From the NCBI GenBank assembly GCA_017649925.1, contig JAGCFX010000010.1, forward strand, positions 1-39,813: 39,813 nucleotides of DNA, in the 5' to 3' direction. The DNA comes from Paludibacteraceae bacterium (lineage in GTDB: Bacteria > Bacteroidota > Bacteroidia > Bacteroidales > Paludibacteraceae). Every line of letters begins with the position of its first letter. Within the stretch, counting starts at the first letter, position 1. Shown piece by piece: positions 1,517 through 18,958 of this stretch. Below the pieces are notes generated by a model that ran no database searches, had not been told where the DNA came from, and saw only the letters and a list, made by a program, of their open reading frames with translations. The position numbers were made by a program, and so were the translations under genes.

Positions 1517-1517
1517 A

Positions 1518-2504
1518 TCAGTTACTTATTGTGCGTAAAACGAAATACCTCAAAACGACTTCCAGCAGCAAGCAGATCAGTGCGGCCATCAGGAACGGAG
1601 CGAAGTTCTCCGTATGTTTGCTGTACTCGCGCACACGCAGTTTTGTTTTCTCCAATTGGTCAATCTGCTCATAGATCCGTTTCAGACTGCCGTTATCCGT
1701 TGCGCGGAAATACTGACCTCCTGTCGTCTCGGCGATGCGGCGCAGTGTGCCTTCGTCAAACTCCGAGTCCATCGTCATATATTGTACGCCCATCGGCGTA
1801 TGAACCGGCACGCGCGTTTGACCGTAACTGCCGACGCCCACCGTATAAACACGGATGCCGAAGGTCTTGGCTATCTCTGCCGCTGTTTGCGGATCAATAT
1901 CGCCGCGGTTGTTTGAACCATCGGTTAACAGAATTACCACTTTGCTCTTCGTCTCGCTGTCTTTCATGCGGTTCACTGCATTCGCCAAGCCCAGACCGAT
2001 AGCCGTACCATCTTCAATCATGCCGTATTCTACGGATTTGAAGAGGTTCACCAGCACTGCGTGATCGGTTGTCAGCGGGCATTGTGTGAAACTCTCCCCG
2101 GCAAAAACGACAAGTCCTATCTGATCGTTCGGACGGGCAATCACAAAGTCCGACGCCACCTGTTTGGCGGCCTCCAGACGATTGGGTTTCAGGTCTTCGG
2201 CAAGCATTGTGCCGGATATATCCAGCGCCATCATGATGTCGATACCTTCCGTACTCTCCGAAGACCAACGGTTCGTCAACTGCGGGCGCGCGAGCGCGAT
2301 ACTTAATAAGGTGATGACCGCTACGCGTAACACAAACGGAACATGCAACAACCATATCCTCAGGCTCTTCGACTGCGCAGCAAGCGTTGAGGTATCCGAA
2401 ATCTGAACACTCGCGTCCGACTTGCGCAGTTCGTAGATATACCAGCCGATAACGGGTATCAGCAGGAATAACAGGAATAAATATCCCGGATTAGCAAATG
2501 TCAT
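1518..2504 (-). CDS. batA: BatA, VWA-domain membrane protein
   Basis: A 328-residue protein with two N-terminal membrane helices (about 8-24 and 55-72), a VWA domain and a C-terminal helix (about 305-322), the usual BatA plan and length. The MIDAS reads DISGT (95-99), so the third position is Thr rather than the usual Ser; Thr can still offer a hydroxyl ligand. The DGTAIG and LLTDGSNN segments complete the metal site. The ATG overlaps the stop of the preceding BatD-like gene (ATGA), and the stop lies 1 nt before batB. The family is tied to aerotolerance in Bacteroides, with MoxR as the presumed ATPase partner. BatA and BatB are paralogues; order and adjacency support this assignment. Confidence 0.92.
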   Translation of the reverse strand: MTFANPGYLFLLFLLIPVIGWYIYELRKSDASVQISDTSTLAAQSKSLRIWLLHVPFVLRVAVITLLSIALARPQLTNRWSSESTEGIDIMMALDISGTMLAEDLKPNRLEAAKQVASDFVIARPNDQIGLVVFAGESFTQCPLTTDHAVLVNLFKSVEYGMIEDGTAIGLGLANAVNRMKDSETKSKVVILLTDGSNNRGDIDPQTAAEIAKTFGIRVYTVGVGSYGQTRVPVHTPMGVQYMTMDSEFDEGTLRRIAETTGGQYFRATDNGSLKRIYEQIDQLEKTKLRVREYSKHTENFAPFLMAALICLLLEVVLRYFVLRTISN

Positions 2505-3421
2505 ACTTCGTCCTCCTCTTCTTTATTATCCGATTGGTCTGACTCCTCCGGCTGATCCGAAAGTTTTGTCTCCAAGACAAAGTCATATGCAGCCTTCAAG
2601 CCTTGTTCATTCTCATCGGGCGTGGTATGCCATTTGGCGAACTTCACGAGGTCAGCCAGTTGGAGCATGTTTTTCAGACGGTCAAACAGGTCTTTCTCTA
2701 TCAGCGGCTTCATCGCCTGTAGTGTCTCATCACTCGTCTTCTCCGTGCTCTGCACGTCAAAACGACGACCGATATACTCGCGCACTACATCCGTCAGTTC
2801 GGTCTGATATTCCTTCACTTTACCGTCCTTCCATATCTTCGTGGCCTTGATCTCATCGAGTTTCTCCAAAGCCACCTCATCGGCAGGGCGCAGTAACTCC
2901 GAATTGACGGGTTCTTCTTCCTGCTTGCGGTTCTTCTGATACCAACGCCAGAGGAGATAAGCGCCCACGCCCAAACCGGCAATACTAAGCGCAAGGAGTA
3001 TCCAGCGGATGATTCCCCACCACCAGATAGGTGCGCGTTCGATATCTTTGATATCGGTGATAGCGAGCGTTGTATCTATCTCAAACGGCTGAATGACATT
3101 CAGCGCCATCGGCTCTGTCCAGAATGTATCTTCGCCGCTTACTACCGCTATCGGCTGAATGGCGAAAAGCGAGTCTTTAAAACTCGTAAGTGTCAGATGT
3201 TGTTGCAGTTGCAGCCGACCATCCGGCAACGCAGTAGTGTCAATACCGGTGCGGTCCACTATCTCTATCTCCGGCTGAAGTGTTTCGCCGAAAACAGGCA
3301 GACTGACTTTCTCACTCGCTTCTTGCGTCACTTGCAAATGCAAAGCCGTCTGGTCGCCAAGCATCAACATCGTCGAGTCGATGCTTGCGCTCACCACTAT
3401 TGCTAATAATAAGTTTATCAT
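2501..3421 (-). CDS. BatD-like/DUF4381-like single-pass membrane protein of the bat operon
   Basis: A 306-residue protein. A weak N-terminal signal segment (LLLAIVVSASI) is followed by an extracytoplasmic beta-rich region (about 15-130). Next come a tryptophan-rich membrane segment (WWWGIIRWILLALSIAGLG, about 133-151, extending to 160) and a charged cytoplasmic region ending in an acidic tail (SDNKEEEDEV). The cytoplasmic part resembles the C-terminal region of BatD/DUF4381 proteins found between DUF58 and BatA genes in Bacteroidota. It overlaps both neighbours by ATGA junctions, so it should be made in step with them. Biochemical function is unknown; placement in the Bat complex is inferred from synteny. 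Confidence 0.75.
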   Translation of the reverse strand: MINLLLAIVVSASIDSTMLMLGDQTALHLQVTQEASEKVSLPVFGETLQPEIEIVDRTGIDTTALPDGRLQLQQHLTLTSFKDSLFAIQPIAVVSGEDTFWTEPMALNVIQPFEIDTTLAITDIKDIERAPIWWWGIIRWILLALSIAGLGVGAYLLWRWYQKNRKQEEEPVNSELLRPADEVALEKLDEIKATKIWKDGKVKEYQTELTDVVREYIGRRFDVQSTEKTSDETLQAMKPLIEKDLFDRLKNMLQLADLVKFAKWHTTPDENEQGLKAAYDFVLETKLSDQPEESDQSDNKEEEDEV

Positions 3422-4305
3422 TGTTTAAACAGTCTCATTAATGCCTTCACATAGTCCTCGTCCGTACGCACGGAGATATTATGAATTCCCGTCTTCGTGT
3501 AGATGGCTTCGAGGGCATCCTGTTGTTCACGCCAAGCCCTGTTGTACGCCTCGCGAGTGCTTGCCAGACCGGTATCTGCCCAAACACGCGCGCCGCTCTC
3601 CGGGTCCCGCACTTTGAGCAAGCCTACGTTCGGCAGTTCAGCGTCACGACGATCATAGATCTGAATCGCACTCAAGTCATGCTTTCGGCTCGCGATAACA
3701 ACCGGTGCCACTTCGCCTCTCTTGGCTGGTGTTGCCGTGAATTGAGAATCCATCATGTCGCTTATCAGGAACGCCGCACAACGTCGCTTCTGCGCATTGG
3801 TCAGGAACTGCAGCGCCGCGTTGATATCCGTTCCCTGATGTTCGGGTTCAAAACTCAACAACTCGCGGATGATATGCAGTACATGGCTCTTACCTTTCTT
3901 CGGAGGGATGAATTTCTCCACTTGGTCAGAGAAGAAGATCACGCCCACTTTGTCGTTATTCTCGATGGTCGAGAAAGCGAGCGTAGCAGCAATCTCCGCC
4001 ATCGTGTCGCGTTTCATCTGACTCATCGTACCAAAATTACGACTTCCACTGACATCGACGAGCAGCATCACGGTCAGTTCGCGCTCTTCTTCATAGATCT
4101 TGATGTATGGCCTGTTCATTCGCGCTGTCACATTCCAATCTATAGAACGCACGTCGTCGCCCGGCTGATACTCGCGCACCTCGCTGAAAGCCATACCACG
4201 GCCTTTGAACTGGCTGTGGTATTCGCCCGCGAAGATATTGCGGCTCAACCCGTGAGTCTTGATCTCTATCTTCCGAACCTTTTGTAATAACTCTTCACTT
4301 GTCAT
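3418..4305 (-). CDS. DUF58 family VWA-like protein
   Basis: A 295-residue protein with no signal peptide or membrane helix, hence cytoplasmic. It carries the DUF58 signature REYQPGDDVRSIDWNVTAR (44-62) and a VWA-like fold with a complete DxSxS motif (DVSGS at 84-88). DUF58 proteins nearly always sit beside a MoxR AAA+ ATPase and are thought to act as its adaptor or substrate-binding partner; here moxR ends 36 nt upstream. The stop overlaps the next start (ATGA). The family assignment is firm, but the molecular role is not established. Confidence 0.9.
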   Translation of the reverse strand: MTSEELLQKVRKIEIKTHGLSRNIFAGEYHSQFKGRGMAFSEVREYQPGDDVRSIDWNVTARMNRPYIKIYEEERELTVMLLVDVSGSRNFGTMSQMKRDTMAEIAATLAFSTIENNDKVGVIFFSDQVEKFIPPKKGKSHVLHIIRELLSFEPEHQGTDINAALQFLTNAQKRRCAAFLISDMMDSQFTATPAKRGEVAPVVIASRKHDLSAIQIYDRRDAELPNVGLLKVRDPESGARVWADTGLASTREAYNRAWREQQDALEAIYTKTGIHNISVRTDEDYVKALMRLFKQ

Positions 4306-4341
4306 AAATGACGTTGTTTTCGTAAACTACGCAAACTACGT

Positions 4342-5337
4342 TTACGGTACCTGAACCGCGTTCAGTACTTCCGTGATAATATCTTCGGTCGTGATGTTGT
4401 TAGCCTCGGCCTCGTAGGTCAGACCGATACGGTGACGGAGCACGTCGTAGCAAACGGCACGCACGTCTTCCGGTGTTACATAGCCTCTCCTATGAATAAA
4501 CGCGTACGCACGCGCGGCTTTCGCGAGATTGATGGATGCACGAGGACTGCCGCCAAAAGCAATCATCTGTTTCTGTTCTTTCAGTCCGTATGCTTCCGGA
4601 TCACGCGTTGCAAACACGATATCCACGATGTATTTCTCGATTTTCTCGTCCAAATACACCTCTTCTACAATCTTACGCGCCTTGATGATATCGGCGGTAG
4701 AGAGTATCGGTAGCACTTGTTTCTGCTCGCTGGAGATGTTCTGACGGATGATAGCCTGCTCTTCCTCTTTCTTCGGATAGCCGATTACCACCTTCAGCAT
4801 GAATCGGTCAGTCTGCGCTTCCGGAAGCGGATAAGTACCTTCCTGTTCAATCGGGTTTTGGGTAGCCAGCACAAGGAACGGATCGTCGAGTTTGAAGGTC
4901 TCCTCGCCGATGGTCACTTGGCGTTCCTGCATCGCCTCGAGCAATGCGGACTGCACTTTTGCCGGTGCACGGTTAATCTCATCCGCAAGCACAAAATTAG
5001 CGAAGATCGGACCGCGTTTGGTCTTAAATTCTTCGCTCTTCTGACTGTAGATCTGTGTACCGATAACATCGGCAGGCAACAGGTCCGGAGTAAACTGAAT
5101 ACGGCTGAAATTAGCTTTGATAAGGTCGCTCAATGTCTTGATAGCCAATGTCTTTGCCAGTCCCGGCACACCTTCCAAAAGGATGTGTCCGTCGCTCAAC
5201 AAACCGATCAACAGGCTCTCAACGAGATGTTTCTGACCTACAATAACTTGATTCATACCCAAAGTAAGGGCGTCTACGAACGAACTCTCGCGCTCTACGC
5301 GCTCTTGGAGTTCACGAATATCCACTGGATTTTGCAT
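4342..5337 (-). CDS. moxR: MoxR family AAA+ ATPase
   Basis: A 331-residue cytoplasmic ATPase and first gene of the bat operon. Walker A is GVPGLAKT (56-63) and Walker B is FVLADEINRAP with the acidic pair at 119-120. Downstream are a sensor-1-type segment (LATQNPIEQEGTYPLPEAQ) and a lid domain rich in helices. Length and motifs are standard for MoxR. MoxR ATPases act as chaperone-like remodelers with VWA-domain partners, four of which follow in this operon. The 165-nt gap to the divergent lipoprotein gene must hold the operon promoter; only a weak match to the Bacteroidota consensus is visible. Confidence 0.95.
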   Translation of the reverse strand: MQNPVDIRELQERVERESSFVDALTLGMNQVIVGQKHLVESLLIGLLSDGHILLEGVPGLAKTLAIKTLSDLIKANFSRIQFTPDLLPADVIGTQIYSQKSEEFKTKRGPIFANFVLADEINRAPAKVQSALLEAMQERQVTIGEETFKLDDPFLVLATQNPIEQEGTYPLPEAQTDRFMLKVVIGYPKKEEEQAIIRQNISSEQKQVLPILSTADIIKARKIVEEVYLDEKIEKYIVDIVFATRDPEAYGLKEQKQMIAFGGSPRASINLAKAARAYAFIHRRGYVTPEDVRAVCYDVLRHRIGLTYEAEANNITTEDIITEVLNAVQVP

Positions 5338-6247: not shown

Positions 6248-9200
6248 ATGAGTAAATTTTTACAACGTGTATTAGTATGTTTAACGGTGGCAGTGATGCC
6301 ATTCGTTGCGAATGCACAACAATTGCCGGACCCGGGCTTTGAGAACTGGAACGGTGAGAAGTTCGACGGAAACATCCAGCCGAAGTACTGGAACGGATCG
6401 AACGTAGAACAAGTAGGTTTTAAGTTTAACTTCATCACCCGTGAGACGGGTCACACCGGCTACTGCGCCAAAGTAGAGGACAAGGAAGTCGGTGCGATGG
6501 GTATCACCGAGGTAGGTCCGGGTTATTTTGCGCTCGGTAAGCCTTGGGCATATCTGCCGAGTATCACCGCCATCAACCAGGCAACTGCCGGAACGGAAGG
6601 CGGTATCTCGTTCACTTATCGCCCGGATACCATCTCCGTCTGGATCAAACGTACAGGTTCGGCTTGGAACAACGAGGACTTCCACGTGCTGTTCTACACA
6701 TGGAAAGGAACGGCGCAAGGAACGAGTTACAAGGGAAAGAACGGTAACTGTACGTCCACCAACCGTACCAACGAGGAGTCGGATATCCGTATTGCGCTGG
6801 ATGGAAACGAGTGCCAGACGACAACCGTGGGTCAGCAGATCGCCGAGGGTTGGCTTCGTGACCGCAAGCAGTACAATGATTGGACGAACGTGCGCGTGCC
6901 CATCTATTATCTAAACAACGATGTGCCGCAGATGTGTAACGTCATCTTCTCCGCAGGTAACTACCCTAACTTCCGCGCCAACAGCGGTCTGAACGAAGGT
7001 AACGCCATCTACGTGGATGATGTAGAACTGATCTACTCGTCCAAGATTGACCACCTCTTTATCGGCGGTAAGGAATGGAAAGGTTTCAACCCGAACAGCA
7101 CCGAGGAACAGACGTATTCGGTAGGCCGTACGACAGAAGTGCCGGAGGTATACGGTATGCGTGGTACGGGTTCGCTGACCAACACCAAAGGTACGAAGGT
7201 GGACTTCCCGGGACGTAAGCTCTCCGGCAACGAGATCACAATCTCTTATGGTCAAGTGGACGGCACTCCGACGGTTATCACCGTCCGCGCAGAAGACGGT
7301 TCGTCCACAATGACTTATAAAATCAAGATGGTTCAAGAGCCTTCTGACAACCCACGTCTGAACACCATCATGGTTAACGGCGAGTCCATTAAGGGCTACA
7401 ACGCATACGTAGGCACATACAACGTAGCGCTGCCTTACGGAACGACCGCTGCACCTGAGGTTACTTTCACTTACGCCGAGGATGGTCAGACTGCTGTGGT
7501 AACGCAGGCTTCTTCGCCGACTGGTACCGCCACTATTGTTGTGACCGCACCGGACAACAAGACGAAGATGACCTATACGATCAACTTCTCGGTAGCTCTG
7601 CTATCCGATAACACGCTGAAGGATATCAAGGTCAACGGAGAGAGTCTGCCGAGTTTCAACCCGACACTTTCATCCTATAAAGTAGAGTTGCCGCTGGGCA
7701 CGGAGACAATGCCGACTGTAGAGGCCGTTTCCGCTTATCCCGCAGGTGCTCAGACTATTACATATAATGCTCCGGATAAGATCGATGGCGGTCAGTATCA
7801 GATTAGCGTAACTACTCCGGGTAACCAGAACCCGCGTGTATACAAACTGAACTTCAAGATCACCGCTTCATCCAACAGCAAGCTGCGTGACCTCCAGATG
7901 GGCGGTTATATCATAGCTTTCAATCCGGACAACACGACTTATTATGTGGACCTGCCAATGGGTACTACGGCGCTGCCGGAGATCACTTACGTGGCTGGTG
8001 ACAAAGAGCAGACGATAACCGTCGAAGAAGGTGGCCTGAACGGAACAACGAAGATCACCGTCACTGCCGGTAACGGCACAAACACTACGGTATATAAGAT
8101 TGTTTGCTCCACCAAGAAATCCGATGTATCTTATCTGAACGACATTCTCCTAGACGGTGTTTCGCTGCCGGGCTTTGATCCGTTTACCTACCGTTACACG
8201 GTAGATCTCGGTCTTGGTGCTACTACTATCCCGACCATCACTACCGTTCCGGGTGACCAGTATCAACCCGAACCCCGTATCGTGCTGGGTGCTATCAACG
8301 CGACGACACGTATCTTCGTGACGGCAGACGACGGCTCTACCTCGCTGTATGAGATCGTCTTCACCGTTAAACTGTCCAGCGTTTCTACCCTGTCGATGAT
8401 TAAGATCGGCGGTGTGAACCTCGAGGGCTTTGATCCGGATATCACCGAATACAATGTTAACCTGCCGCAAGGCACGAAAGAACTGCCGACGATTGAGGCG
8501 GTCAAAGGAGATCCTTATCAGTCCGAACCGGTTATCCGCGAAGGCGGTATTGACGGCGACACGAAAATCACCGTACGTGCGCAAGACGGTTCTACAACGG
8601 TTTATATCCTGCATGTTTCGGTAACTCAGTCCTCCAAGACTACGCTGGATGCCGTTTATTTCGACGGACATAAGTTCCTTGGCTTCGACCCTGCTATCCG
8701 TGAATACGACAGCACACTGACCGAAGGTGTGACCAAAGTGCCGGTACTGACGTACGACTACGATGAGAGCCAGCAGAGTGTAGTGATGATGCAGGAAGGT
8801 TCAACCTACACCGTGCTCGTCATCGCAGAGAGCGGTGCTTCGGATACCTATGTCTTCCGTTTCCATGTACAGAAGTCCGAGAACGCCAAACTGAAGATGA
8901 TCTATCTCGACGGCGACTCTTTGGAAGGCTTTGATCCGGAGATCAACAACTATTCCGTTGTGCTTACCAAAGCAACTTGTCCGATTATTACGGTGGACAA
9001 AGACCCGACACAACAAGTGACCATCACCACACCGGTATCGACTGGTGAGGCGCTTATCCGTGTACAACCGGAGTCCGGTGCGCCGATGGATTATACCATC
9101 ACATTCGAGTCCTCGCTCCAACCGCTGTTGAGCACTATCAAAGCGGACGGCGTAGAGATAGAAGGCTTCGCAGAAGACAAATTCGATGGCTACACTGTTA

Positions 9201-12200
9201 CATACTCGGGCGCAATGCCGGTTATTACCTTTGAGGTAAAACATGAGGGCACGAAAGCTTCGCTGGTAACCAACGCAGCGGGCGCGCGTATTTATACGGA
9301 AATCGCAGGCACGAAGAAAGAGTACGTCATCGCCTTTACCAAACTGGCTTCGTCTGACGCTACACTCACTTCTATCGCAGCCAACGATTCCATCTTTGCT
9401 GACTTTGCAAAAGACAAGCTGAACTACAATTACATACTGCCGACAAGCCAGGAATTCCCGGTTATCACCTATACGGCTTCCAATCCTGAGAAGCAGCATA
9501 TCGTAGCCGGTCTTATTTCGCAATATGACTATGCTATCACTGTTATCGCAGAGAACGGCGCAAAGAACGAATATACGATTCATTATGTTTCCAACGCTTC
9601 TACCAACACTACGCCGGCAGAAGTGAAGATTGGTGACGAGATCATCGCTTTCGGCGAGAATGATACAATCGAAAAGACCATCACCAAAGGTAGCGACCTG
9701 CCTGAGTTGACCTACACGGCACAAGACAACCAAACGGTTATCTCCGCCCAAACCGGCGCACTCGAGCAACAGATGATCGTTATTGCCGAGGATGGTTCTT
9801 CTACGAAACAAGTCATCAAATACAACGAAGATAACGTAATTACCGCACAACTCAACGACCTGCACATCCTTAACGGAGAAAAGTGGGAACAAGTAGCGGG
9901 CTTCAAGAAAGATAGTTTCGTTTACAATGTTACTCTTCCGCGTGGAACGAAGAACGCACCTTGCGTTTGGGCAGTTGCCGGTCAACCGGGCCAAACCATC
10001 ACGATAACCTATGGTAATGCGGATGGTCAGACCAACGTTCACGTTGTGGCTTCCGACAACTCGTTCGCTGACTACAACATCAACTTCACCGTAGCAAAAT
10101 CGAACAACTGCAAGTTGGGCGACCTGCAATTGAATACAGATGAAGATGTGGAATTGCAACCTGCCTTCCATGCAGATTCTCTCAATTATGTAGTGGTAAT
10201 GCCGTTTGGCGCTACCGCGTGCCCTGTACTCGAGTTTGAAAAGGCAAGAGATGAGAATAACGTTGAGATTGCAGAACAACGTATCGACATGATCTCCCGT
10301 CCGTTGGGCGACACCACAAAGATTATTGTAACTGCAGAGAACGGCGATTCTCGTACATACAATATCTACTTCAAAGAAACATTTGCGGAAGAGGCTAACC
10401 GTTTGGTTTCCATCTATATTCCGGAAATCGAGAATAACCTAAGTCTCAAAGACAAAACCAAACGTAATTTCGATGTTACGCTGCCTTACGGTTGCCGTAG
10501 CCTTACTGTCGAGTACGAGAAGAACTTCCCCGAGCAGACGGTATTTGTTCAACCGGGTGGTATTAACAATCCTACGATTTTGACCGTTAAGTCAAATCGT
10601 CCGGGCGAGGCAGACGAGGTATATACCATCAACCCGATTAAGACGACTCAGAATCCGGCTATTCTGACCGGTATTACTGTTGATGGCGAGGCGTTACCGG
10701 GATTTGATCCGAACCGTTTCACATATATTCTGAACCGCACGGCTACCACTACGCCAAAAGTAAAGGTAACTAAAAATTCAGGCGTAGAGTACGATGTTGA
10801 GACTGACCTCTACAAATGGATAGCTACGGTGGAAAAAGACGGGTTTGTTAATACCTATAAAATTTTCTTCCATTATCCGAATGATGTAATTCCTAACAAT
10901 AATTTTACAAGTTGGACGAAGACTTCATCCGCGAACTCAGACAAACCGTCATCGTGGAATGCTCCGGGTGATTACATTGACACCTATTTATGGACAGCCA
11001 AAGCAAGTGATGTAATAAAGAAGGAGAGTAATACAGTTGTTCACCTCGTTACTGCATATTGGGCTGCGTTAGCCGGTCCGATTCCTTCGGTCCTCAACTT
11101 GGGCACAATGACTGCCAAATTTGCTGTGGCAGGCGGTACAACGGTAACTCCGTCAGGCTTTATCGGCTTCCATAATACACCGGATAAAGCAATCGTCAAT
11201 TATAAATATACAAGTAAAGCCGGAAACGGTGCATTGTTCCGCTTTAAATTTGTGGATATTGATGGCGAAGAACACCTCTTTGATCACACCCAAACAAGCA
11301 CTAAGAGCAGTTACGCAAATTACAATGTGCCCTTGACAACTGACGGTATGGCAGTGGCTGGATTGGATATTATCATTGATGCTACTGGACAATATCCGAC
11401 GGCATCCTCTTCGGCTGATCTGTATGTGGATTCCATCGCATTTACTTATAACTCCACTCCTAAGGATGCTAAAGTAAATGGCATTGATGCTGTTTTGAAT
11501 GATAAGAAATTCACGGTAACGCTTACTGATCCGGAGGATGTGAATATCCGTTCATATGAGTTCAACGGTGAGGTATCCGACCAGGCACAGAAACTGACTT
11601 GGGGCGCATGGAGCACTTCCGGCAACCCGAGAGTACGCACTGCTACCATCATTAACTATGCAGAGGATGGCACATCGACAACAGGCTACACTCTCGAAGT
11701 AAAACGTCCGTTGTGCTCGAAGGACTATCTAAGCAATTTGTTGATTGATGGTGCTCAAATCAGTGGTTTCGCAGCCAATACATTGAACTACGAGATTACT
11801 TTGCAACCGAAGCAACAACTTCCTGATATCTATCCGGTACCGGCTTCTTCACTGCAAACCATCACGACGAACTACGATGCTTCGAGCAAGAAGATGACCA
11901 TCACCGTCACATCAGAAACCGGCAGCGTCAAAACCTATACTATTCAGTTTAATGTGAACTTGAGCGCCGATGCTACATTGGCAGGCATTGCCGCCGGCAA
12001 GCAAGCGCTGGATGTTACGCAGCATGAGTTCACGCTGGAAGGCAAGAACATGCCGATTATAACGTTCACCAAGCAGTCTGACCTCCAAACGGTTTCGCTC
12101 ATCAATGGTGTTATCACCGTTACCGCCGAAGATGGCGTGCACACCGGGATTTATACCATCGAGTGTAAGGAAACGATTCCTCCGAGCGACAACCAATTGG

Positions 12201-15200
12201 CAACTATTACACGCGAACTGGAGCGTATCAAAGATTTCGATGCAGGTACGTTTGATTATAATGCAACGTATAGTGACAACGTTGGCTTCGAGCGTAAGGG
12301 CTTGCAAGAGGCTGACGCTATCGTGGAAACGTTGACCGATGCTTACATGAGTATCGCTGTCAACGGCATCAGCACCTATACGATCACCTACCCGACTGAG
12401 GCTTCTGATGATGCTGATTTGGCAGACATCCTCTATAACGGCGTATCGTACGACCAGTTCTCGCCGCAACAGGTTGATTATGAAGAGGAGACCGATGATC
12501 CGGTTGACGTGAAATTCATCCTCAAAGAGAAAGTACAGAAACTCGAACTTGATATGATTCGTACGCGCGGTGCTCTTTATACCAAGGTAACCGCTAAAGT
12601 AACTGCTGAAAGCGGCAGAGAGAAAACGTACACCTTCATTATCAAGCCCGAAAGCTCTGTCATCAACACCCTCGCTTGCATCAAGGTTGCCGGCGACACG
12701 CTTGAGGACTTCTTCCCCGAGAGAACCAACTACGTTTACAATATTCCGGTGGCTACGCCGAAACTGGCTGAGCCGAACATCCCGAACGTAGAGTATGTCC
12801 TCGGTCAAGAGAGTGAAACGGTCGAGATCATTCCGGCTACGAAGATTGGTGAATATACCCAACTCATCGTAACGCCGGAGAATGGCGACATCACAAAGCA
12901 GAAGACCTACAAGATCCAGATGGTGGCAGAACCGTCGCGTAACGCCGAACTGAAGAACATCATCGTGAATAGTGAGCCTGTCAAGAACTTCAAACCGTCG
13001 CGTACCTACTATTCAATGCAGGTTGTGGGTGACCAAGTGAAAATTGACTACTCGCTCGGCGATCCGTTCCAAACGGTTGAAGTATCCGAAACGACCGATG
13101 CTGAGGGCACCATCATCAAAACGCTGAAGGTAACAGCACAAGACGGCGTTACTGTTCGTGAGTACGAGATTGAAATCTGGAAGGCTGTTAAGTCCAACAA
13201 CGCTAATCTTGAGGACATCCTCTTCAACAATGCGCCGATGTCCGCTTACAAAGAGGGTCTCTACTTCAGCGAGAAGAACTATAACTACGTTATCCCGGTT
13301 CTCTCTACGGACACGCTGCCTGATATCTCTGCTAAACTGCAGGAAGACGCACAGCGCATTGAGATCACCAGCGTGGATGGTACGGAAGGTATCGTGAAGA
13401 CCATCATCGTTACGGCTGAAGACGGCACAACGAAGAACGAATATACGCTGCTCTTCAAGCGTACCAAGTCCGACAACACGAAGCTCGAGACGATCCGTAT
13501 CAACGGTGTGGCATTGGCTAACTTCGCCGATACTATCCACGAGTATGTTTATCCGCTGGAGGTAGGCGTTCGTAAGTTGCCGCTCGTCACCCCGATGAAG
13601 GGCGAACCGGTTCAGACCGTATCGCAGACGCAGGATAGCCTCACTACTATCATCACCGTCATCGCAGAGAACGGTGCGAAGGGCGAGTATAAAGTTCGCT
13701 TCGAATACACCCTCTCCGATATCGATGTACTCAAGAGCCTCTCTATCATCGGTGAGCAAAACGATATCGATGGCTTCCGTCCGGATAGCTTCCGCTACTC
13801 GTACATCCTGCCGATGGGCGTTCGTGAGGCTTACGAGCTGACCTACGAAAAGGGTTACAAAGACCAGAAAGTGGAGACCTCGGTTGTCAAAGAAGGACTC
13901 CATACTATCTACCACTTCACGGTTGAGGCGGAGAACGGTAGCAAAAACTTCTATACCGTCACCTATGAGATGCAGCGTTCTAACGTCGATACGTTGATCT
14001 CCATTACCTTGGGCGGTAAGCCGATGGTTGAGTTCGAGCCGCGCACGAATGACTACACCGTTGTTCTGCCTCATGGCACGAAATCCAACCCGACGGTAGA
14101 GGTTGACTCGACACTCTACGGCGATCCGTACCAGAAGGTTGAGATTGACTCTACGAAGAACTACACCAAGGTGGCTGTCATCGCTGAGGACCAGCACCAA
14201 CGTGTGTACACCATCCTCTTTGAGATCGCGCGTAGCAACAATGCCGACCTCGCAGGTATAGCTATCGACGGTACGCTCCTCTCTGACTTTGACGAGGACA
14301 AACTCAACTACACCGTTGCCCTGCCGTACGATGCTACGTCCCTGCCGAACGTGACATACTCGCCGGTAGAGGATGAGCAGATTATCAAAGTAAGCAAAGA
14401 TGGTGCTACCGTTTATATCGAAGTGCTCGCAGAGGACCGTGTAACGAAGAAGACCTACGTTGTCAACTTCGTACGCGCACTCTCTTCCGAGGCACACATC
14501 AATATGATCTATCTTGACGAGAAACCGATTGAAGGCTTCATGCGCGATATCTACGAGTACCCGGTTGTGCTGCCGTACGGTACGGAAGAACTGCCGCAAG
14601 TATCTTACCTCTTGGCAGACACAACAGCCAAAGTGGATACCATCTGGTTCGGCGATATCCTCACTCTCCGCGTCACCTCGATGGACGAGACCGAGCTTGA
14701 GTATGTGATTAACTTCACGCGTGCTCTCTCGCCTGTAAGTTGGCTCGACGGCATCATCATCAAGGGTGAACCGCTGGAGAACTTCCATCAGGATACGCTC
14801 GTCTATAAGATCACCTACCCGATCGGTACGCCGACAAGTGAGTTCCTCACAGCAGATGATATCACTTACATCAAGGCCGATACCGCTGAGACCGTCATCG
14901 TAAACATGCAAGGAGATGACATCACCCTTGTGGTAACAGCCGCCGACGGCGAGAACTCTACGGCTTATGTCATCCGTCAGTTCGTTGCTCTGCGCAGCAA
15001 TAGCCTCTTGAAGGCCATCATGATCGACGGTAAGATGTTACCGCACTTCGCTGACAGCGTCTTCACTTACGAGTATATCCTCGCCGAAGGTACGATGATT
15101 CCGGAGATCGTAGCAGAGCCGCAAGACTCCGCAGCGACATGGGATCTGACTAAGGGTGATATCGGTAAAGAGACCATCGTCTACGGTATCGCTGAGGATG

Positions 15201-15568
15201 GTTCCGAGACTCAGTATAAGATCTTGTTCCGTTACTCGACTATCAACGAAGGTCTGGATGCTACGTTCAATGACGTGCTTGTCAAAGTCGTTGGCTCGCA
15301 ACTCTTCGTGGCTACCATCCGTAAGAACGTATCCTTCGCGCTCTATGATCAAAGTGGCCGACTCGTATACTACAATAGTGTACCGGTTGCTGACCCGAAC
15401 GCTTCGGATATCTACTACGACCCGCAGTCCAAAGAGGTGCTCAACGATGTTACCGATGCTGACTCCGGACTCTTCATCGACATCAACCAAGGACAGATCT
15501 ACTTCTACTCCTTCTACGTTGGTGACAAGCAGAAGATCAAATCCGGCAAACTCATCGCAGTGCCCTGA
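6248..15568 (+). CDS. Giant secreted repeat protein: two PCMD domains, about 30 cadherin/Ig-like repeats, T9SS-like C-terminus
   Basis: The protein has 3106 residues from ATG 6248. This start is chosen because it opens a clear signal peptide (cleavage near ANA/QQ, residue 23); the frame is open upstream to a TTG at 6122, but that extension is Asn/Lys-rich and lacks signal character. Order: PCMD domain (about 27-265, LPDPGFENWNG start, IYVDDVELIY end); about 15 repeats of about 85 residues (266-1546); a second PCMD-like domain (1547-1736, NNNFTSWT start, LYVDSIAFTY end); about 15 more repeats (1737-2999); a C-terminal domain (3000-3106) like T9SS sorting domains (FALYDQSGRLVYY, IYFYSFYVGDKQKIKSGKL). 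Each repeat runs 'L..I.v.G..l.gFdp....Y.v.LP.Gt..lP.v' to 'I.V.AeDG....Y.I.F', fitting the cadherin-like beta-sandwich family. Likely a cell-surface or secreted adhesin or glycan-binding fibre; no catalytic domain is visible. It is its own transcription unit. Confidence 0.9.
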   Translation: MSKFLQRVLVCLTVAVMPFVANAQQLPDPGFENWNGEKFDGNIQPKYWNGSNVEQVGFKFNFITRETGHTGYCAKVEDKEVGAMGITEVGPGYFALGKPWAYLPSITAINQATAGTEGGISFTYRPDTISVWIKRTGSAWNNEDFHVLFYTWKGTAQGTSYKGKNGNCTSTNRTNEESDIRIALDGNECQTTTVGQQIAEGWLRDRKQYNDWTNVRVPIYYLNNDVPQMCNVIFSAGNYPNFRANSGLNEGNAIYVDDVELIYSSKIDHLFIGGKEWKGFNPNSTEEQTYSVGRTTEVPEVYGMRGTGSLTNTKGTKVDFPGRKLSGNEITISYGQVDGTPTVITVRAEDGSSTMTYKIKMVQEPSDNPRLNTIMVNGESIKGYNAYVGTYNVALPYGTTAAPEVTFTYAEDGQTAVVTQASSPTGTATIVVTAPDNKTKMTYTINFSVALLSDNTLKDIKVNGESLPSFNPTLSSYKVELPLGTETMPTVEAVSAYPAGAQTITYNAPDKIDGGQYQISVTTPGNQNPRVYKLNFKITASSNSKLRDLQMGGYIIAFNPDNTTYYVDLPMGTTALPEITYVAGDKEQTITVEEGGLNGTTKITVTAGNGTNTTVYKIVCSTKKSDVSYLNDILLDGVSLPGFDPFTYRYTVDLGLGATTIPTITTVPGDQYQPEPRIVLGAINATTRIFVTADDGSTSLYEIVFTVKLSSVSTLSMIKIGGVNLEGFDPDITEYNVNLPQGTKELPTIEAVKGDPYQSEPVIREGGIDGDTKITVRAQDGSTTVYILHVSVTQSSKTTLDAVYFDGHKFLGFDPAIREYDSTLTEGVTKVPVLTYDYDESQQSVVMMQEGSTYTVLVIAESGASDTYVFRFHVQKSENAKLKMIYLDGDSLEGFDPEINNYSVVLTKATCPIITVDKDPTQQVTITTPVSTGEALIRVQPESGAPMDYTITFESSLQPLLSTIKADGVEIEGFAEDKFDGYTVTYSGAMPVITFEVKHEGTKASLVTNAAGARIYTEIAGTKKEYVIAFTKLASSDATLTSIAANDSIFADFAKDKLNYNYILPTSQEFPVITYTASNPEKQHIVAGLISQYDYAITVIAENGAKNEYTIHYVSNASTNTTPAEVKIGDEIIAFGENDTIEKTITKGSDLPELTYTAQDNQTVISAQTGALEQQMIVIAEDGSSTKQVIKYNEDNVITAQLNDLHILNGEKWEQVAGFKKDSFVYNVTLPRGTKNAPCVWAVAGQPGQTITITYGNADGQTNVHVVASDNSFADYNINFTVAKSNNCKLGDLQLNTDEDVELQPAFHADSLNYVVVMPFGATACPVLEFEKARDENNVEIAEQRIDMISRPLGDTTKIIVTAENGDSRTYNIYFKETFAEEANRLVSIYIPEIENNLSLKDKTKRNFDVTLPYGCRSLTVEYEKNFPEQTVFVQPGGINNPTILTVKSNRPGEADEVYTINPIKTTQNPAILTGITVDGEALPGFDPNRFTYILNRTATTTPKVKVTKNSGVEYDVETDLYKWIATVEKDGFVNTYKIFFHYPNDVIPNNNFTSWTKTSSANSDKPSSWNAPGDYIDTYLWTAKASDVIKKESNTVVHLVTAYWAALAGPIPSVLNLGTMTAKFAVAGGTTVTPSGFIGFHNTPDKAIVNYKYTSKAGNGALFRFKFVDIDGEEHLFDHTQTSTKSSYANYNVPLTTDGMAVAGLDIIIDATGQYPTASSSADLYVDSIAFTYNSTPKDAKVNGIDAVLNDKKFTVTLTDPEDVNIRSYEFNGEVSDQAQKLTWGAWSTSGNPRVRTATIINYAEDGTSTTGYTLEVKRPLCSKDYLSNLLIDGAQISGFAANTLNYEITLQPKQQLPDIYPVPASSLQTITTNYDASSKKMTITVTSETGSVKTYTIQFNVNLSADATLAGIAAGKQALDVTQHEFTLEGKNMPIITFTKQSDLQTVSLINGVITVTAEDGVHTGIYTIECKETIPPSDNQLATITRELERIKDFDAGTFDYNATYSDNVGFERKGLQEADAIVETLTDAYMSIAVNGISTYTITYPTEASDDADLADILYNGVSYDQFSPQQVDYEEETDDPVDVKFILKEKVQKLELDMIRTRGALYTKVTAKVTAESGREKTYTFIIKPESSVINTLACIKVAGDTLEDFFPERTNYVYNIPVATPKLAEPNIPNVEYVLGQESETVEIIPATKIGEYTQLIVTPENGDITKQKTYKIQMVAEPSRNAELKNIIVNSEPVKNFKPSRTYYSMQVVGDQVKIDYSLGDPFQTVEVSETTDAEGTIIKTLKVTAQDGVTVREYEIEIWKAVKSNNANLEDILFNNAPMSAYKEGLYFSEKNYNYVIPVLSTDTLPDISAKLQEDAQRIEITSVDGTEGIVKTIIVTAEDGTTKNEYTLLFKRTKSDNTKLETIRINGVALANFADTIHEYVYPLEVGVRKLPLVTPMKGEPVQTVSQTQDSLTTIITVIAENGAKGEYKVRFEYTLSDIDVLKSLSIIGEQNDIDGFRPDSFRYSYILPMGVREAYELTYEKGYKDQKVETSVVKEGLHTIYHFTVEAENGSKNFYTVTYEMQRSNVDTLISITLGGKPMVEFEPRTNDYTVVLPHGTKSNPTVEVDSTLYGDPYQKVEIDSTKNYTKVAVIAEDQHQRVYTILFEIARSNNADLAGIAIDGTLLSDFDEDKLNYTVALPYDATSLPNVTYSPVEDEQIIKVSKDGATVYIEVLAEDRVTKKTYVVNFVRALSSEAHINMIYLDEKPIEGFMRDIYEYPVVLPYGTEELPQVSYLLADTTAKVDTIWFGDILTLRVTSMDETELEYVINFTRALSPVSWLDGIIIKGEPLENFHQDTLVYKITYPIGTPTSEFLTADDITYIKADTAETVIVNMQGDDITLVVTAADGENSTAYVIRQFVALRSNSLLKAIMIDGKMLPHFADSVFTYEYILAEGTMIPEIVAEPQDSAATWDLTKGDIGKETIVYGIAEDGSETQYKILFRYSTINEGLDATFNDVLVKVVGSQLFVATIRKNVSFALYDQSGRLVYYNSVPVADPNASDIYYDPQSKEVLNDVTDADSGLFIDINQGQIYFYSFYVGDKQKIKSGKLIAVP
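7043..10885 (+). repeat. First block of about 15 cadherin/Ig-like protein repeats
   Basis: The encoded units are about 80-95 residues long and diverged at DNA level. Anchor segments recur: a Gly before a 'GF(D/N)P' turn, 'LP(x)GT', 'AEDG' or 'AENG', then a 'Y(x)I' strand and a Ser-Asn/Asp hinge. Units near residues 1180-1260 and 1460-1546 are the most degenerate. Confidence 0.85.
11456..15244 (+). repeat. Second block of about 15 cadherin/Ig-like protein repeats
   Basis: Same unit as the first block, after the internal PCMD domain. The first four units (about residues 1737-2060) are the most diverged; later ones restore the 'LP(x)GT' and 'AEDG' anchors. Unit counts were made by eye and may be off by one. 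Confidence 0.8.
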
Positions 15569-15798: not shown

Positions 15799-15827
15799 CA
15801 GCCCAATTGAAAAACACAAGGGTTTGC

Positions 15828-17000
15828 ATGTTTGGTATATTCAATGACAACTTCCCTCCGATTCTCGACGGTGTGGGTATGACGGCGCAGAACTACGCCT
15901 ATTGGTTGAATGAGAAAGGCTATGACGTCGCGGTCGTGACGCCTTATGCTCCTAAGTCGGAGAGCGTTATCAATGCCGCAAAATATCCCATCTATCGTTA
16001 TCCCTCTATCCCTATTCCTTTCCGCCCGCCCTACCGTTTCGGCATGCCGTATATATCCCCGCGTTTCTGGCATCAATGGCGTCAGATGAAGTTCGAACTC
16101 ATTCACGCGCATTGCCCCTTCACGACGGGTGATTTGGCGGTGCAGGCCACGCGCAGGCAACAGATTCCTCTTGTCGCTACCTTCCATTCCAAATACCGCC
16201 AGGATTTCGAGCACAACGTGCCCAACAAGCACGTGGTGGATTTTATGGTGAAGCATATCATCCGTTTCTTCGAGATGGCGGACGAGGTCTGGATCCCGCA
16301 AGCAGCAGTAGAGGAGACGCTCCGCGAGTACGGATTCAAAGGGCATGTCGAGGTTGTCGAGAACGGCAATGATTTCTATACGCCTACGGCGCAGATCGAG
16401 GCCATGCGCGCGGATATGCGCGATGAGTTGGGTCTTGAGCCTAACGAGACCATGCTGCTCTTCGTTGGACAACATATCTGGGAGAAGAACATCGGCTTTA
16501 TCCTCGATTCGCTCGCGCTCATCAAAGACCTGCCGTTCCAACTCTTCATGGTCGGTACAGGCTATGCCGTACGCGAAATTCGCCATCGTATCAAGCAGTT
16601 AGGTCTCTCGCATAAAGTGACCATGCTCGGAAATATCCACGACCGCGAACGTCTCAAGCGTATTTACTCTGCGGCAGACCTCTTCATCTTCCCGTCTTTG
16701 TATGACACTTGCGGTCTGGTGGTGCGCGAAGCGGCAGCCATGCACACACCATCACTCATGCTCGCAGACTCTACGGCGGCTACCGCTATCCATGACGGCG
16801 TTGACGGCTTTGTTACGCCCAATTCCACAGAGGCGTACGCCCAACGCATCACCAAACTGATGGAGAACCCCGAACTGCTCAGCCGAGTCGGCGCAAAAGC
16901 ATCGAAGACTATCTCCCGTTCATGGGAGAGCGTCATCGATGAAGTGATACTCCGATACAGAGATATTCAAGCATCGTATAAACTCAAACATGGAAAATAG
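15828..17000 (+). CDS. GT4 family glycosyltransferase
   Basis: A 390-residue GT-B enzyme. ATG 15828 is chosen because it gives a leader after the mapped promoter boxes and opens directly with the first Rossmann strand (MFGIFNDNFPPILDGVG). An in-frame TTG at 15807 would add seven residues. The N-terminal domain has the donor/acceptor loop DGVGMTAQNYAYWL and HAHCPFTTGDLA. The C-terminal domain carries VENGNDF, LLFVGQHIWEKN and the GT4 motif region LYDTCGLVVREAA, where the usual first Glu of E-x7-E is Asp. The sequence is closest in style to glycosyltransferases that build glycolipids such as diacylglycerol or phosphatidylinositol glycosides, but donor and acceptor cannot be read off. First gene of a three-gene operon. 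Confidence 0.88.
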   Translation: MFGIFNDNFPPILDGVGMTAQNYAYWLNEKGYDVAVVTPYAPKSESVINAAKYPIYRYPSIPIPFRPPYRFGMPYISPRFWHQWRQMKFELIHAHCPFTTGDLAVQATRRQQIPLVATFHSKYRQDFEHNVPNKHVVDFMVKHIIRFFEMADEVWIPQAAVEETLREYGFKGHVEVVENGNDFYTPTAQIEAMRADMRDELGLEPNETMLLFVGQHIWEKNIGFILDSLALIKDLPFQLFMVGTGYAVREIRHRIKQLGLSHKVTMLGNIHDRERLKRIYSAADLFIFPSLYDTCGLVVREAAAMHTPSLMLADSTAATAIHDGVDGFVTPNSTEAYAQRITKLMENPELLSRVGAKASKTISRSWESVIDEVILRYRDIQASYKLKHGK

Positions 17001-17006
17001 TCACGT

Positions 17007-17372
17007 ATGAAAATGCTCTATTTATTCCTTTTTATGCTCGTTCAGCAGGCCATGTCCGTCGCCGGACAGTTGTTGTTGAAGATGGGCATGGCAGCCGAGA
17101 CCGGCTTTAGATGGTCGTGGCGCAACGTAGGACATCTGTTTATCAATCTATACCTTCAGAGCGGCTTATGGCTTCTCATTGCAGCGAACGTCTTCTGGCT
17201 TTGGCTGCTTAATAAATATGCGTTCTCGCTAGTCTATCCGCTGACGAGTCTCGGCTTTGTCTTCAGCGTCATCTCGGGCATGATTGTCTTCCATGAGCAC
17301 GTGGCTCCTATCCACTGGTTAGGCGTGTTGCTTATTATGGCGGGTTGCATCTGTATCGCAAAAGTGGTATGA
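17007..17372 (+). CDS. Small four-helix DMT/SMR-type membrane protein
   Basis: A 121-residue, very hydrophobic protein with four predicted helices (about 5-25, 46-66, 72-92, 100-119), the size and layout of SMR/EamA half-transporters such as the ArnE/ArnF undecaprenyl-phosphate-aminoarabinose flippase subunits. The last helix pair with VYPLTSLGFVFSVISG and VLLIMAGCICIAKV is typical of the fold. It sits 6 nt after the glycosyltransferase and overlaps the next start (ATGA), so a role in flipping a lipid-linked sugar is a reasonable inference. Such proteins work as dimers; no second copy is present here. Confidence 0.75.
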   Translation: MKMLYLFLFMLVQQAMSVAGQLLLKMGMAAETGFRWSWRNVGHLFINLYLQSGLWLLIAANVFWLWLLNKYAFSLVYPLTSLGFVFSVISGMIVFHEHVAPIHWLGVLLIMAGCICIAKVV

Positions 17373-18958
17373 AATCGAATCGCGCCAACTGGATCATCTT
17401 CGGGCTCTTTTCCCTCATGGTCTTTGCCAAGACCCTCCTCTTTGACCATTTTGCCTTCCGGGAATGGAGTTTTGAACCTTCGCTGCTAAGCCTACTCTGC
17501 AAACTTGCAGCGGCAATGTTCTTCGGCTCTTTCATTTTCCTTCTGCGCGACAAACGCTGGCTTATTCTCCTCTCTGTAGTGCTTGATACATGGTTCATTG
17601 CCAACCTCGTGTACATGCGCAACAACCATATCCTGTTGGATGGAGAAGCGTTTAATATGGCGGGGAATCTGCACGGCTATTTCTGGTCCGTACTTATCTA
17701 TATTGAGTGGGGAATAGATCTGATTTTCTATGGTATAACAGCACTCTTCTGCCTTATCTTTCTCTATGCCAAGAAGACCGAACGTAGTTGGCGTTCGTGG
17801 CTCGTGACCTGTCTGATAGGTCTGCTGCCCTTGATATATGAACGTACCACGCATGTTTATGGGCAGAACTTCCCCAAGACCGTTGCCTCCACTTCCGTTC
17901 TCTACGCGCCCTATTATATCGTAGCGGACTATCGCCTGATGATCAACGGTATCCAGCCCGTTCGTCCTATGAACGAAGAAGATATGGCTCAAGCAGCCCT
18001 TCTTAACCAAGGACAAGACTCCATCACTCTTGATAGTCCGCTTATAATCGTTTTATTGGAGAGCCTCGAGAATTGGGTACTCACGCCCGAGATCATGCCT
18101 AATCTCTACCGCCTAACTACCAACGACCATGTCTTCTACGCCAATCGTATCCACACGCAGATAGTTGGTGCGCCATCGGCAGATGGACAGATGATCGTCA
18201 ATACCGGTCTGCTTCCTATCACGGCCGGCGGAACATGTCTGCATTATGCGCACAATACCTATCCCGCGGTGATGAAACTGGCGCCGGACAGCGCTATCTG
18301 TCTTCTTCCCCACGATACTTGCGTATGGAATCAGACCGCAATGTCACCCGCCTACGGCTACGACTCCACGATATGCTATCTGGATATCGACACCATCCTC
18401 TTCCGCAAACTCGATAGCCTCGTGGACCACGGCTACCGTTATATCCAATGCATCACGCAGTCCACGCACGCACCTTTTGTCAACGAGAAATACAGTCATC
18501 TCGAGTTGCCCGAATCGATGCCGTGGGTGATGTATAACTTCATCCGTGGTTTTAACTCTTTGGACGATGGACTCGGATACCTCGTGCGTAAGATAGAGAC
18601 GGATTCCGTACTGCAGCAATATACCATCGTCATTACCGGCGATCATCGAATCTTGCATTACGAAAAACGCCAACAGATGCAGCGTTATGCGGACAAACAT
18701 AACATGCACCTCACGCCTTCGGATGACTGCCTGCCGCTTATCATCTATTCGCCGCGCATCTCCGGCAACCCGCGTTATACGGCAGATGCTTATCAGATGG
18801 ATATTTATCCCACTTACATGCCGCTCATCGGCGCGGGAGACTTTCACTGGCAGGGCTTCGGCGTCAACCTGCTGGACAAACAACAAAGCGCCATCTCTGA
18901 AGATGACGCCTATATCCTTTCTGATAAGTTAATCCGCAACAACTACTTCGCGCATTAA
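17369..18958 (+). CDS. LTA synthase-like sulfatase-family membrane transferase
   Basis: A 529-residue protein from ATG 17369, which overlaps the previous stop (ATGA); an in-frame TTG at 17345 is less likely. About five N-terminal membrane helices (to residue 157) precede an extracytoplasmic alkaline-phosphatase-superfamily domain. Metal and catalytic sites are visible: IIVLLESLENW (Glu231), GAPSADGQ (candidate nucleophile Ser270, where LtaS has Thr), THAPF (His367) and VITGDHRI (Asp425, His426). Bacteroidota members with the following NTGLLP segment are annotated LTA synthase family. It probably transfers a phosphoglycerol or phosphoethanolamine group onto a glycolipid or surface glycan made by the two upstream genes. 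Substrate unknown. Confidence 0.82.
   Translation: MKSNRANWIIFGLFSLMVFAKTLLFDHFAFREWSFEPSLLSLLCKLAAAMFFGSFIFLLRDKRWLILLSVVLDTWFIANLVYMRNNHILLDGEAFNMAGNLHGYFWSVLIYIEWGIDLIFYGITALFCLIFLYAKKTERSWRSWLVTCLIGLLPLIYERTTHVYGQNFPKTVASTSVLYAPYYIVADYRLMINGIQPVRPMNEEDMAQAALLNQGQDSITLDSPLIIVLLESLENWVLTPEIMPNLYRLTTNDHVFYANRIHTQIVGAPSADGQMIVNTGLLPITAGGTCLHYAHNTYPAVMKLAPDSAICLLPHDTCVWNQTAMSPAYGYDSTICYLDIDTILFRKLDSLVDHGYRYIQCITQSTHAPFVNEKYSHLELPESMPWVMYNFIRGFNSLDDGLGYLVRKIETDSVLQQYTIVITGDHRILHYEKRQQMQRYADKHNMHLTPSDDCLPLIIYSPRISGNPRYTADAYQMDIYPTYMPLIGAGDFHWQGFGVNLLDKQQSAISEDDAYILSDKLIRNNYFAH

What the first reader, a model, noticed from the sequence alone, without database searches (positions are those of the whole stretch)
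6248..15568. Giant surface protein with mirrored halves: PCMD, 15 repeats, PCMD, 15 repeats, T9SS-like tail
Seen: two PCMD-like domains (residues about 27-265 and 1547-1736), each followed by about 15 cadherin/Ig-like units of about 85 residues, then one C-terminal sorting-like domain. Known: PCMD domains in Bacteroidota usually occur once, at the start of modest-sized surface proteins. Inference: the gene arose by head-to-tail joining of two such proteins, or by duplication of a half, giving a fibre with a ligand-binding head and a mid-shaft binding module. It may be an undescribed adhesin or glycan-capture fibre.
Basis: partly seen in the sequence, partly recalled or inferred. Interest (0 to 1): 0.8.

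Follow-up and report, generated by a model that had tools for sequence, protein, structure and literature searches.

The report
Giant fold-back fibre with equal arms
A giant surface protein of gut bacteria seems to fold in half like a hairpin, carrying a sugar-binding-type domain at its tip, because its two long arms of repeated units grow and shrink together, nearly unit for unit and at facing positions, as the protein evolves.

Summary
Window 6248-15568 encodes 3106 aa: PCMD domain, 15 cadherin-like repeats, a second PCMD-type domain, 15 repeats, C-terminal tail. The duplication reading does not: repeat n does not pair with n+15.

Instead the arms are mirror-related about the middle domain. 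Of 115 complete relatives, 96 have equal repeat counts in the two arms, 16 differ by one, 2 by two, 1 by six, while arms range from 6 to 29 repeats. A gene truncated at 29+8 was predicted to end as 29+29 and did (arms 2512 and 2514 aa). Recent tandem expansions lie at the same distance from the middle in both arms, with the same super-unit (two 24+24 genes: tip numbers 9-20, unit 3; the 29+29 gene: 14-20 and 14-22, unit 2), yet are copied within each arm. Profile similarity and residual evolutionary distances of repeats both peak at i+j=31.

Best explanation: the chain folds back, arms zip antiparallel into a shaft, the variable middle domain sits at the tip, PCMD1 and the tail at the base. 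An antiparallel dimer predicts the same mirror rule and is not excluded. No coordinates or experiments were available.

The parts
6248..15568 (+). Giant fold-back fibre gene, 3106 aa
   Evidence: Open frame from ATG to stop; PCMD1 matches in all 37 genomes of the genus searched, the window's own included, many of them in frames of about 2000-4750 aa
6248..6316 (+). Signal peptide, residues 1-23
   Evidence: Read directly from the sequence: hydrophobic stretch ending ANAQ before QLPDPGFENW; no signal predictor was run
6317..7048 (+). PCMD1, residues 24-267, inferred to sit at the base of the folded fibre
7049..10897 (+). Arm 1: 15 cadherin-like beta-sandwich repeats, residues 268-1550
   Evidence: Own repeat HMM; PF12733; 15 repeats in this arm in most complete orthologues
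10871..11458 (+). Middle PCMD-type domain (PCMD2), residues 1542-1737, inferred tip
11498..15256 (+). Arm 2: 15 cadherin-like repeats, residues 1751-3003
   Evidence: Own repeat HMM; PF12733
15257..15565 (+). C-terminal tail, residues 3004-3106, likely a divergent type IX secretion sorting domain
   Evidence: Alignable in 30 relatives; 4 of 30 match TIGR04183 weakly, best E 0.004, the window's own tail does not; genome has PorU, 1014.8 bits

Best explanation
The protein is a single-chain fold-back (hairpin) surface fibre. After export, probably by the type IX system, the chain runs outward through arm 1, turns at the middle PCMD-type domain, and runs back through arm 2. Repeat i of arm 1 packs against repeat N+1-i of arm 2, making a two-stranded shaft with the carbohydrate-binding-type PCMD2 at the tip and with PCMD1 and the tail together at the cell surface. 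Because repeats face one another, an insertion or loss in one arm is matched at the facing place in the other, which keeps the arms equal or nearly so while their length varies about five-fold. The tip varies between species and would bind the varying target, most likely a glycan of plant fibre, mucus or a neighbouring cell. Shown: anatomy, equal arms, mirror positions of expansions, mirror coevolution, CBM-like fold of both PCMD domains (predicted models). Inferred: intramolecular pairing, tip location, surface anchoring, glycan binding.
For: Equal arms: of 115 complete genes 96 have equal counts, 16 differ by one, 2 by two, 1 by six; correlation of counts 0.977, and 0.978 in the 39 genes outside 15+15 and 15+14. 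Equal classes seen: 6+6, 7+7, 9+9, 10+10, 11+11, 15+15, 19+19, 20+20, 24+24, 29+29. Prediction met: truncated 29+8 and 19+17 genes became 29+29 (arms 2512/2514 aa) and 19+19 when fetched whole. On a PCMD1 tree of 108 genes the 17 arm labels need 24 changes. Expansions at mirror places with the same super-unit in both arms, copied within arms: in the 29+29 gene repeats two or four apart at tip numbers 15-20 share 74-92% DNA identity within an arm, facing repeats of the two arms 59-68%. Self-similarity of the two arms agrees in mirror order (mean r 0.393) more than in the same order (0.079), in 89 of 102 genes. Repeat-profile similarity across arms peaks at i+j=31, p 0.0006. Residual evolutionary distances over 70 genes correlate across arms best at i+j=31/30, 0 of 20000 permutations as high; holds in blocks of only the outer repeats (p 0.0001-0.013) and in 41 non-redundant genes. 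CBM-type jelly-roll matches for the middle domain.
Against: No structure shows the arms touching: the AlphaFold tool gave no coordinates, and pTM (centre 0.54, one-arm control 0.44) decides nothing. An antiparallel dimer of straight rods predicts the same mirror rule. Nineteen of 115 genes are unequal by count; about 8 of them (14+15 three times, 13+15, 14+12, 14+13, 19+20, 24+18) differ in length too. Direct cross-arm similarity inside single genes does not show the mirror: of six genes tested, the exact mirror sum is among the five best in one, and the two 10+10 genes show an unexplained signal at offset 14 (z 2.2-2.3). In the coevolution matrix only 3 of 15 arm-1 repeats have their exact mirror partner as best partner, 9 of 15 within one place. 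Some coevolution near the middle may be plain sequence neighbourhood. The type IX tail is not recognised by the curated model.
Confidence: 0.7

Rival explanations
1. Antiparallel homodimer: two straight molecules lie side by side head to tail, or reach across from two cells as cadherins do, so that arm 1 of one faces arm 2 of the other and the middle domains meet at the two-fold axis.
For: Predicts the same equal arms and mirror coevolution. Cadherins and protocadherins are among the Foldseek matches of the centre model.
Against: Anchoring at the C-terminus alone (inferred) fits a hairpin more simply. A jelly-roll tip whose ends are adjacent (recalled, not measured here) would naturally turn the chain. 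The centre piece as one chain scores a somewhat higher pTM than a one-arm piece of equal length (0.54 vs 0.44), weak.
Confidence: 0.2
2. Duplication of a half: the gene arose by joining two PCMD-plus-15-repeat proteins, and equal counts are inherited.
For: Two homologous PCMD domains; 15+15 in 70 of 115 genes; a half-like relative exists (L208: PCMD-like start plus 15 repeats, no second PCMD, no tail).
Against: No n / n+15 similarity; arm counts change in both arms in many separate places of the tree, which inheritance does not explain; expansions lie in mirror, not same-order, places.
Confidence: 0.04
3. Equal arms reflect a rule on the position of the middle domain (for example a secretion or ruler constraint) without contact between the arms.
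For: Would also centre the middle domain as length varies.
Against: Does not predict that expansions use the same super-unit at facing places, nor that facing repeats coevolve.
Confidence: 0.06

Closest known systems
Streptococcal antigen I/II adhesins (SpaP, SspB, AspA)
   Same: Single-chain surface adhesin whose two repeat regions pair into a stalk that holds a variable middle domain away from the cell; N- and C-terminal domains interact in SpaP (passages of PMC7732690; PMC3178794; PMC6586375).
   Different: Stalk there is an alpha-helix intertwined with a polyproline helix, LPXTG-anchored, in streptococci. Here both arms are beta-sandwich repeats (models almost wholly of strands), in Bacteroidales; no sequence relation was tested. 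Mirror co-expansion of arms is not mentioned in the passages seen.
Periscope proteins (passages of PMC9704523)
   Same: Single-chain surface rods whose tandem-repeat number varies and sets the reach of a functional domain.
   Different: There one rod of highly identical repeats varies among strains. Here two arms vary together between species; repeats are mostly diverged.
Bordetella FhaB (passages of PMC13232309)
   Same: A giant filament that leaves the cell in a hairpin configuration and carries a globular tip domain.
   Different: Beta-helix shaft, no second arm of matching repeats described in the passages seen; two-partner secretion.
PCMD-family structures 3hbz, 4jrl, 4het, 3s30
   Same: Both PCMD domains share this fold in predicted models.
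   Different: Those chains have 256-348 residues in the library; here the fold is built twice into a 3106-aa fibre.

Membership tests
PCMD (PF13201), N-terminal domain | Pfam score over cut-off | tested here: met
PCMD (PF13201), middle domain | Pfam score over cut-off | tested here: not met
   No PF13201 match among the families listed for the 17 members scanned, E up to 1
PCMD superfamily, middle domain | Homology and fold shared with PCMD proteins | tested here: met
Cadherin-like beta sandwich (PF12733) | Pfam score over cut-off | tested here: met
   62.6 bits vs 24.2 for the whole protein, 4 stretches pass on their own; the other units rest on the own HMM
Type IX secretion type A tail (TIGR04183) | Score over cut-off in the tail | tested here: not met
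   Window tail: no match at the E 1 setting; 4 of 30 tails match weakly, best E 0.004; the gene is not among the own-genome matches
Type IX secretion cargo | Machinery in the genome | tested here: met
   PorU 1014.8 bits over a cut-off of 420; 12 TIGR04183 matches elsewhere, 11 over the cut-off, one of them inside the PorU frame
Antigen I/II family | Alanine-rich alpha-helical arm | tested here: not met
   Model pieces are strands with a few helices of 3-4 residues
Antigen I/II-like working principle | Two arms pair so that the middle domain is the tip | tested here: inconclusive
   Mirror coevolution supports antiparallel pairing; contact not seen
Periscope proteins | Highly identical tandem repeats varying within a population | tested here: not met
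   The window gene is not among the 26 printed of 102 genes ranked by highest within-arm repeat identity, the last of which reaches 0.49; within-species variation was not tested
Carbohydrate-binding module | Demonstrated sugar binding | not testable with these tools
   Fold resemblance only

The most novel reading that the evidence does not exclude
A new class of bacterial fold-back fibre in which two arms of about 6 to 29 beta-sandwich repeats zip antiparallel, and in which duplications in one arm are repeatedly compensated by duplications of the same super-unit at the facing place of the other arm: a repeat-scale version of compensatory mutation that reveals the fold from sequence alone.
Probability: 0.68. 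Interest if true: 0.88.

Novelty: new variant of a known kind. Interest (0 to 1): 0.82.

Why it matters
It would add a large family of surface fibres, not named in the papers I could search, to Bacteroidales of herbivore guts, with a variable tip and adjustable reach. It also offers a rare natural experiment: whole-domain insertions that must be matched in a partner strand. The signature (equal arms, mirror expansions, mirror coevolution) can be sought in other giant repeat proteins to tell hairpins (or antiparallel dimers) from lone straight rods without a structure, and its claims are directly testable on members of 1608-1610 aa.

Tried and rejected
Half-duplication: rejected, no n / n+15 signal. 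Quantised lengths: arm counts 10, 15, 19, 24, 29 first suggested whole turns of about 4.8 repeats (note); further genera gave 6, 7, 9, 11 and 20, so dropped. Cross-arm mirror similarity inside single genes: not seen in most of six genes; it appears only in profiles over many orthologues. Pfam and NCBIfam scans of the middle domain and tail gave only weak, scattered names. PDB sequence search gave no hit for the middle-domain profile and one weak hit for PCMD1 (3hbz, E 0.11). AlphaFold pTM as a hairpin test: centre 0.54, one-arm control 0.44; the alignments differ in depth (58 and 44 rows) and conservation, so not decisive. Jelly-roll matches of the middle domain also include domains of Bacillus insecticidal proteins, phage tailspikes and meprins, so the fold alone does not prove sugar binding. 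Paper searches: 0 papers for the PCMD terms, for Paludibacteraceae with adhesin and rumen, and for the fold-back repeat terms; others (10 listed; 1; 5) and the 6 of 126 papers listed showed no title or abstract start that describes this family. Only the open-licence library was searched, and one search was seen in part.

Left out of the 115-gene count: 16 frames that were truncated, broken or lacked a domain (three of them, L151, L144 and L149, re-entered whole as L167, L169 and L168), and, from later fetches, L170, L203, L207, L208, L210 and the split second gene of L189. The 115 are not filtered for close relatives. One search used 102 of 104 genes (arms differing by more than one left out). 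Searches used 108 genes, without the six 15+14 genes and L169. The control alignment used 44 of 58 orthologues, because a start-motif search missed 14. The related-loci scan kept 80 of 258 relatives.

Full report
What is there. The window lies in a 1.98 Mb, 94-contig genome. Its relatives in the named collection are Paludibacteraceae and uncultured Bacteroidales genomes, many from ruminant and other herbivore guts (record titles). One ATG-started frame at 6248-15568 encodes 3106 aa. PCMD1 scores over Pfam's cut-off. A repeat profile trained on the protein finds 30 units, 15 and 15, either side of residues 1551-1750. The middle domain is too diverged for Pfam but matches PCMD1 profile to profile (E 1.4e-12). 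Its predicted structure matches solved PCMD proteins first, then other jelly-roll domains, among them several carbohydrate-binding modules. PCMD1 matches the same four structures first.

Kin. Forty of 61 genomes searched have a PCMD1 match, including all 37 of the genus counting the window's own. In the family search 213 of 358 genomes, in 14 of 33 genera, match. Many hold a giant gene; many also hold a short paralogue (frames of about 360-456 aa); the six compared with the window protein cover PCMD1 and the first repeat only.

The unexpected rule. In relatives the number of repeats differs, but the middle domain stays in the middle. Of 115 complete genes, 96 have the same count in both arms, 16 differ by one, 2 by two and 1 by six; counts correlate at 0.977, and at 0.978 in the 39 genes that are neither 15+15 nor 15+14. 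Arms run from about 500 aa (6+6) to about 2520 aa (29+29). If the middle domain sat at random between repeats, a balance at least as good would have probability 0.018-0.171 in each class other than 15+15; the classes are not independent, so I do not rely on a product. On the PCMD1 tree of 108 genes, the 17 labels need 24 changes and the 15+15 label 16, of which at least 10 are forced by well-supported branches; changes to unequal labels are among these. Labels 10+10, 19+19, 11+11 and 7+7 need 3, 4, 2 and 2 changes. By my own reading of that tree, equal-armed labels other than 15+15 sit in roughly a dozen separate places, several at unresolved forks.

A prediction. Three loci ended inside the second arm, with 29+8 and twice 19+17 repeats. 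I wrote down in advance that they should be 29+29 and 19+19 (note). Fetched whole, they are 5621 aa with 29+29 (arms 2512 and 2514 aa), and 3880 and 3877 aa with 19+19. The two 19+19 genes are close in size and may be close relatives.

Mirror, not tandem. Three kinds of evidence point to mirror pairing. First, recent expansions: numbering repeats outward from the middle domain, the two 24+24 genes (one lineage in the tree) have their pairs over 55% identical at numbers 9-20 in both arms, with period 3; the 29+29 gene at 14-20 and 14-22, with period 2. The copies are within arms: in the 29+29 gene, repeats two or four apart at numbers 15-20 share 74-92% DNA identity, facing repeats of the two arms 59-68%. 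Over 102 genes, arm self-similarity agrees in mirror order (mean r 0.393) and hardly in the same order (0.079); mirror wins in 89. Second, profile similarity of the 30 positions over 59 orthologues: next-door repeats are most alike (offset 1), and across arms the peak is at i+j=31 (permutation p 0.0006), with nothing at n+15 (p 0.78). Third, coevolution: residual evolutionary distances of repeats over 70 genes correlate across arms best at i+j=31 and 30 (0.211 and 0.206, same-order diagonal -0.054; 0 of 20000 permutations as high). This holds in blocks of the outermost 6 to 12 repeats of each arm (p 0.0001-0.013), in 200 subsamples (best sum 31 in 119, 30 in 81), and in 41 non-redundant genes. 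Gains and losses fall largely in the middle of each shaft; the exact positions assigned there are approximate.

Results against. Direct comparison of repeats across arms inside single genes does not show the mirror: of six genes the exact mirror sum is among the five best in one (L069), and the two 10+10 genes show an unexplained signal at offset 14. In the coevolution matrix the best partner is the exact mirror for 3 of 15 arm-1 repeats and within one place for 9 of 15. Of the 19 unequal genes, 11 (five 10+9, six 15+14) look like missed degenerate repeats: the 10+9 genes have an unmatched stretch of about 70 aa in arm 2, and the 15+14 genes have a second arm at least as long as the first. The other 8 (14+15 three times, 13+15, 14+12, 14+13, 19+20, 24+18) look real; the 24+18 gene has a further degenerate repeat but stays unequal. 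The rule is strong, not absolute.

Interpretation. Equal arms, compensating expansions and mirror coevolution are what one expects if arm 1 and arm 2 pack antiparallel. The simplest form is a hairpin within one chain: PCMD2 at the tip, PCMD1 and tail at the base. The middle domain is the more variable (24-58% identity to the window's in 16 alignable relatives) and PCMD1 the more conserved (50-70% in 18), as expected for a ligand-facing tip and a structural base. An antiparallel dimer would give the same signatures and is the main rival. AlphaFold pieces (centre pTM 0.54, one-arm control 0.44) lean to the hairpin only weakly, since no coordinates were returned.

Export and anchoring. The genome has the type IX sortase PorU and 12 matches to the type A sorting tail elsewhere, 11 over the cut-off. 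The fibre's tail can be aligned in 30 relatives and ends in a pattern that looks like type A tails (recalled), but the curated model does not recognise it. I treat type IX export as likely, not shown.

Known relatives in kind. Antigen I/II adhesins of streptococci work this way, with two repeat regions forming a stalk under a variable domain (passages), but from an alpha-helix and a polyproline helix. So this is a new variant of a known working principle, with other building blocks and, as far as my searches (the last seen in part) show, an undescribed family. The mirror co-expansion is the most novel part.

Limits. Counts rest on a repeat model trained on the same family. Sequences are mostly metagenome assemblies, in which repeats could be mis-assembled, though long open frames and matched arms argue against it. 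Permutation tests treat repeats as exchangeable, and relatedness of genes is handled only through the residual correction and one non-redundant subset.

Noticed in passing
L071:3678-4856 (-), window genome contig 30: Short paralogue (392-aa frame): signal-like start, PCMD1 and one repeat, no tail. Similar short genes occur in many relatives, in several directly upstream of a longer PCMD1 frame (G190, G172, G162, G196, G216); possibly a base partner.
   Followed up: partly
L208 (G347, another genus of the family): Half-like form: PCMD-like start followed by 15 repeats, with no middle PCMD and no tail.
   Followed up: partly
L188 and L193: Two giants near each other on one contig: a 15+15 gene and a 6+6 gene (1608-1610 aa), good small models for experiments.
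   Followed up: partly
L177 residues 1106-1310: An extra unidentified stretch of about 205 aa within arm 1 of an 11+11 gene.
   Followed up: no
L138; second gene of L189: Giant genes that appear broken or split into two frames; the longer piece in L189 has 29 matched repeats but no recognised middle PCMD domain.
   Followed up: no
window 2-5337 and 15807-18958: Neighbours are ordinary: MoxR, DUF58 and BatA/vWA genes upstream on the other strand; a glycosyltransferase and a sulfatase-family protein downstream.
   Followed up: partly
window genome contigs 35, 22 and 61: Other very large frames (3798, 2879 and 1989 aa) with recognised type IX tails; their architecture was not examined.
   Followed up: no
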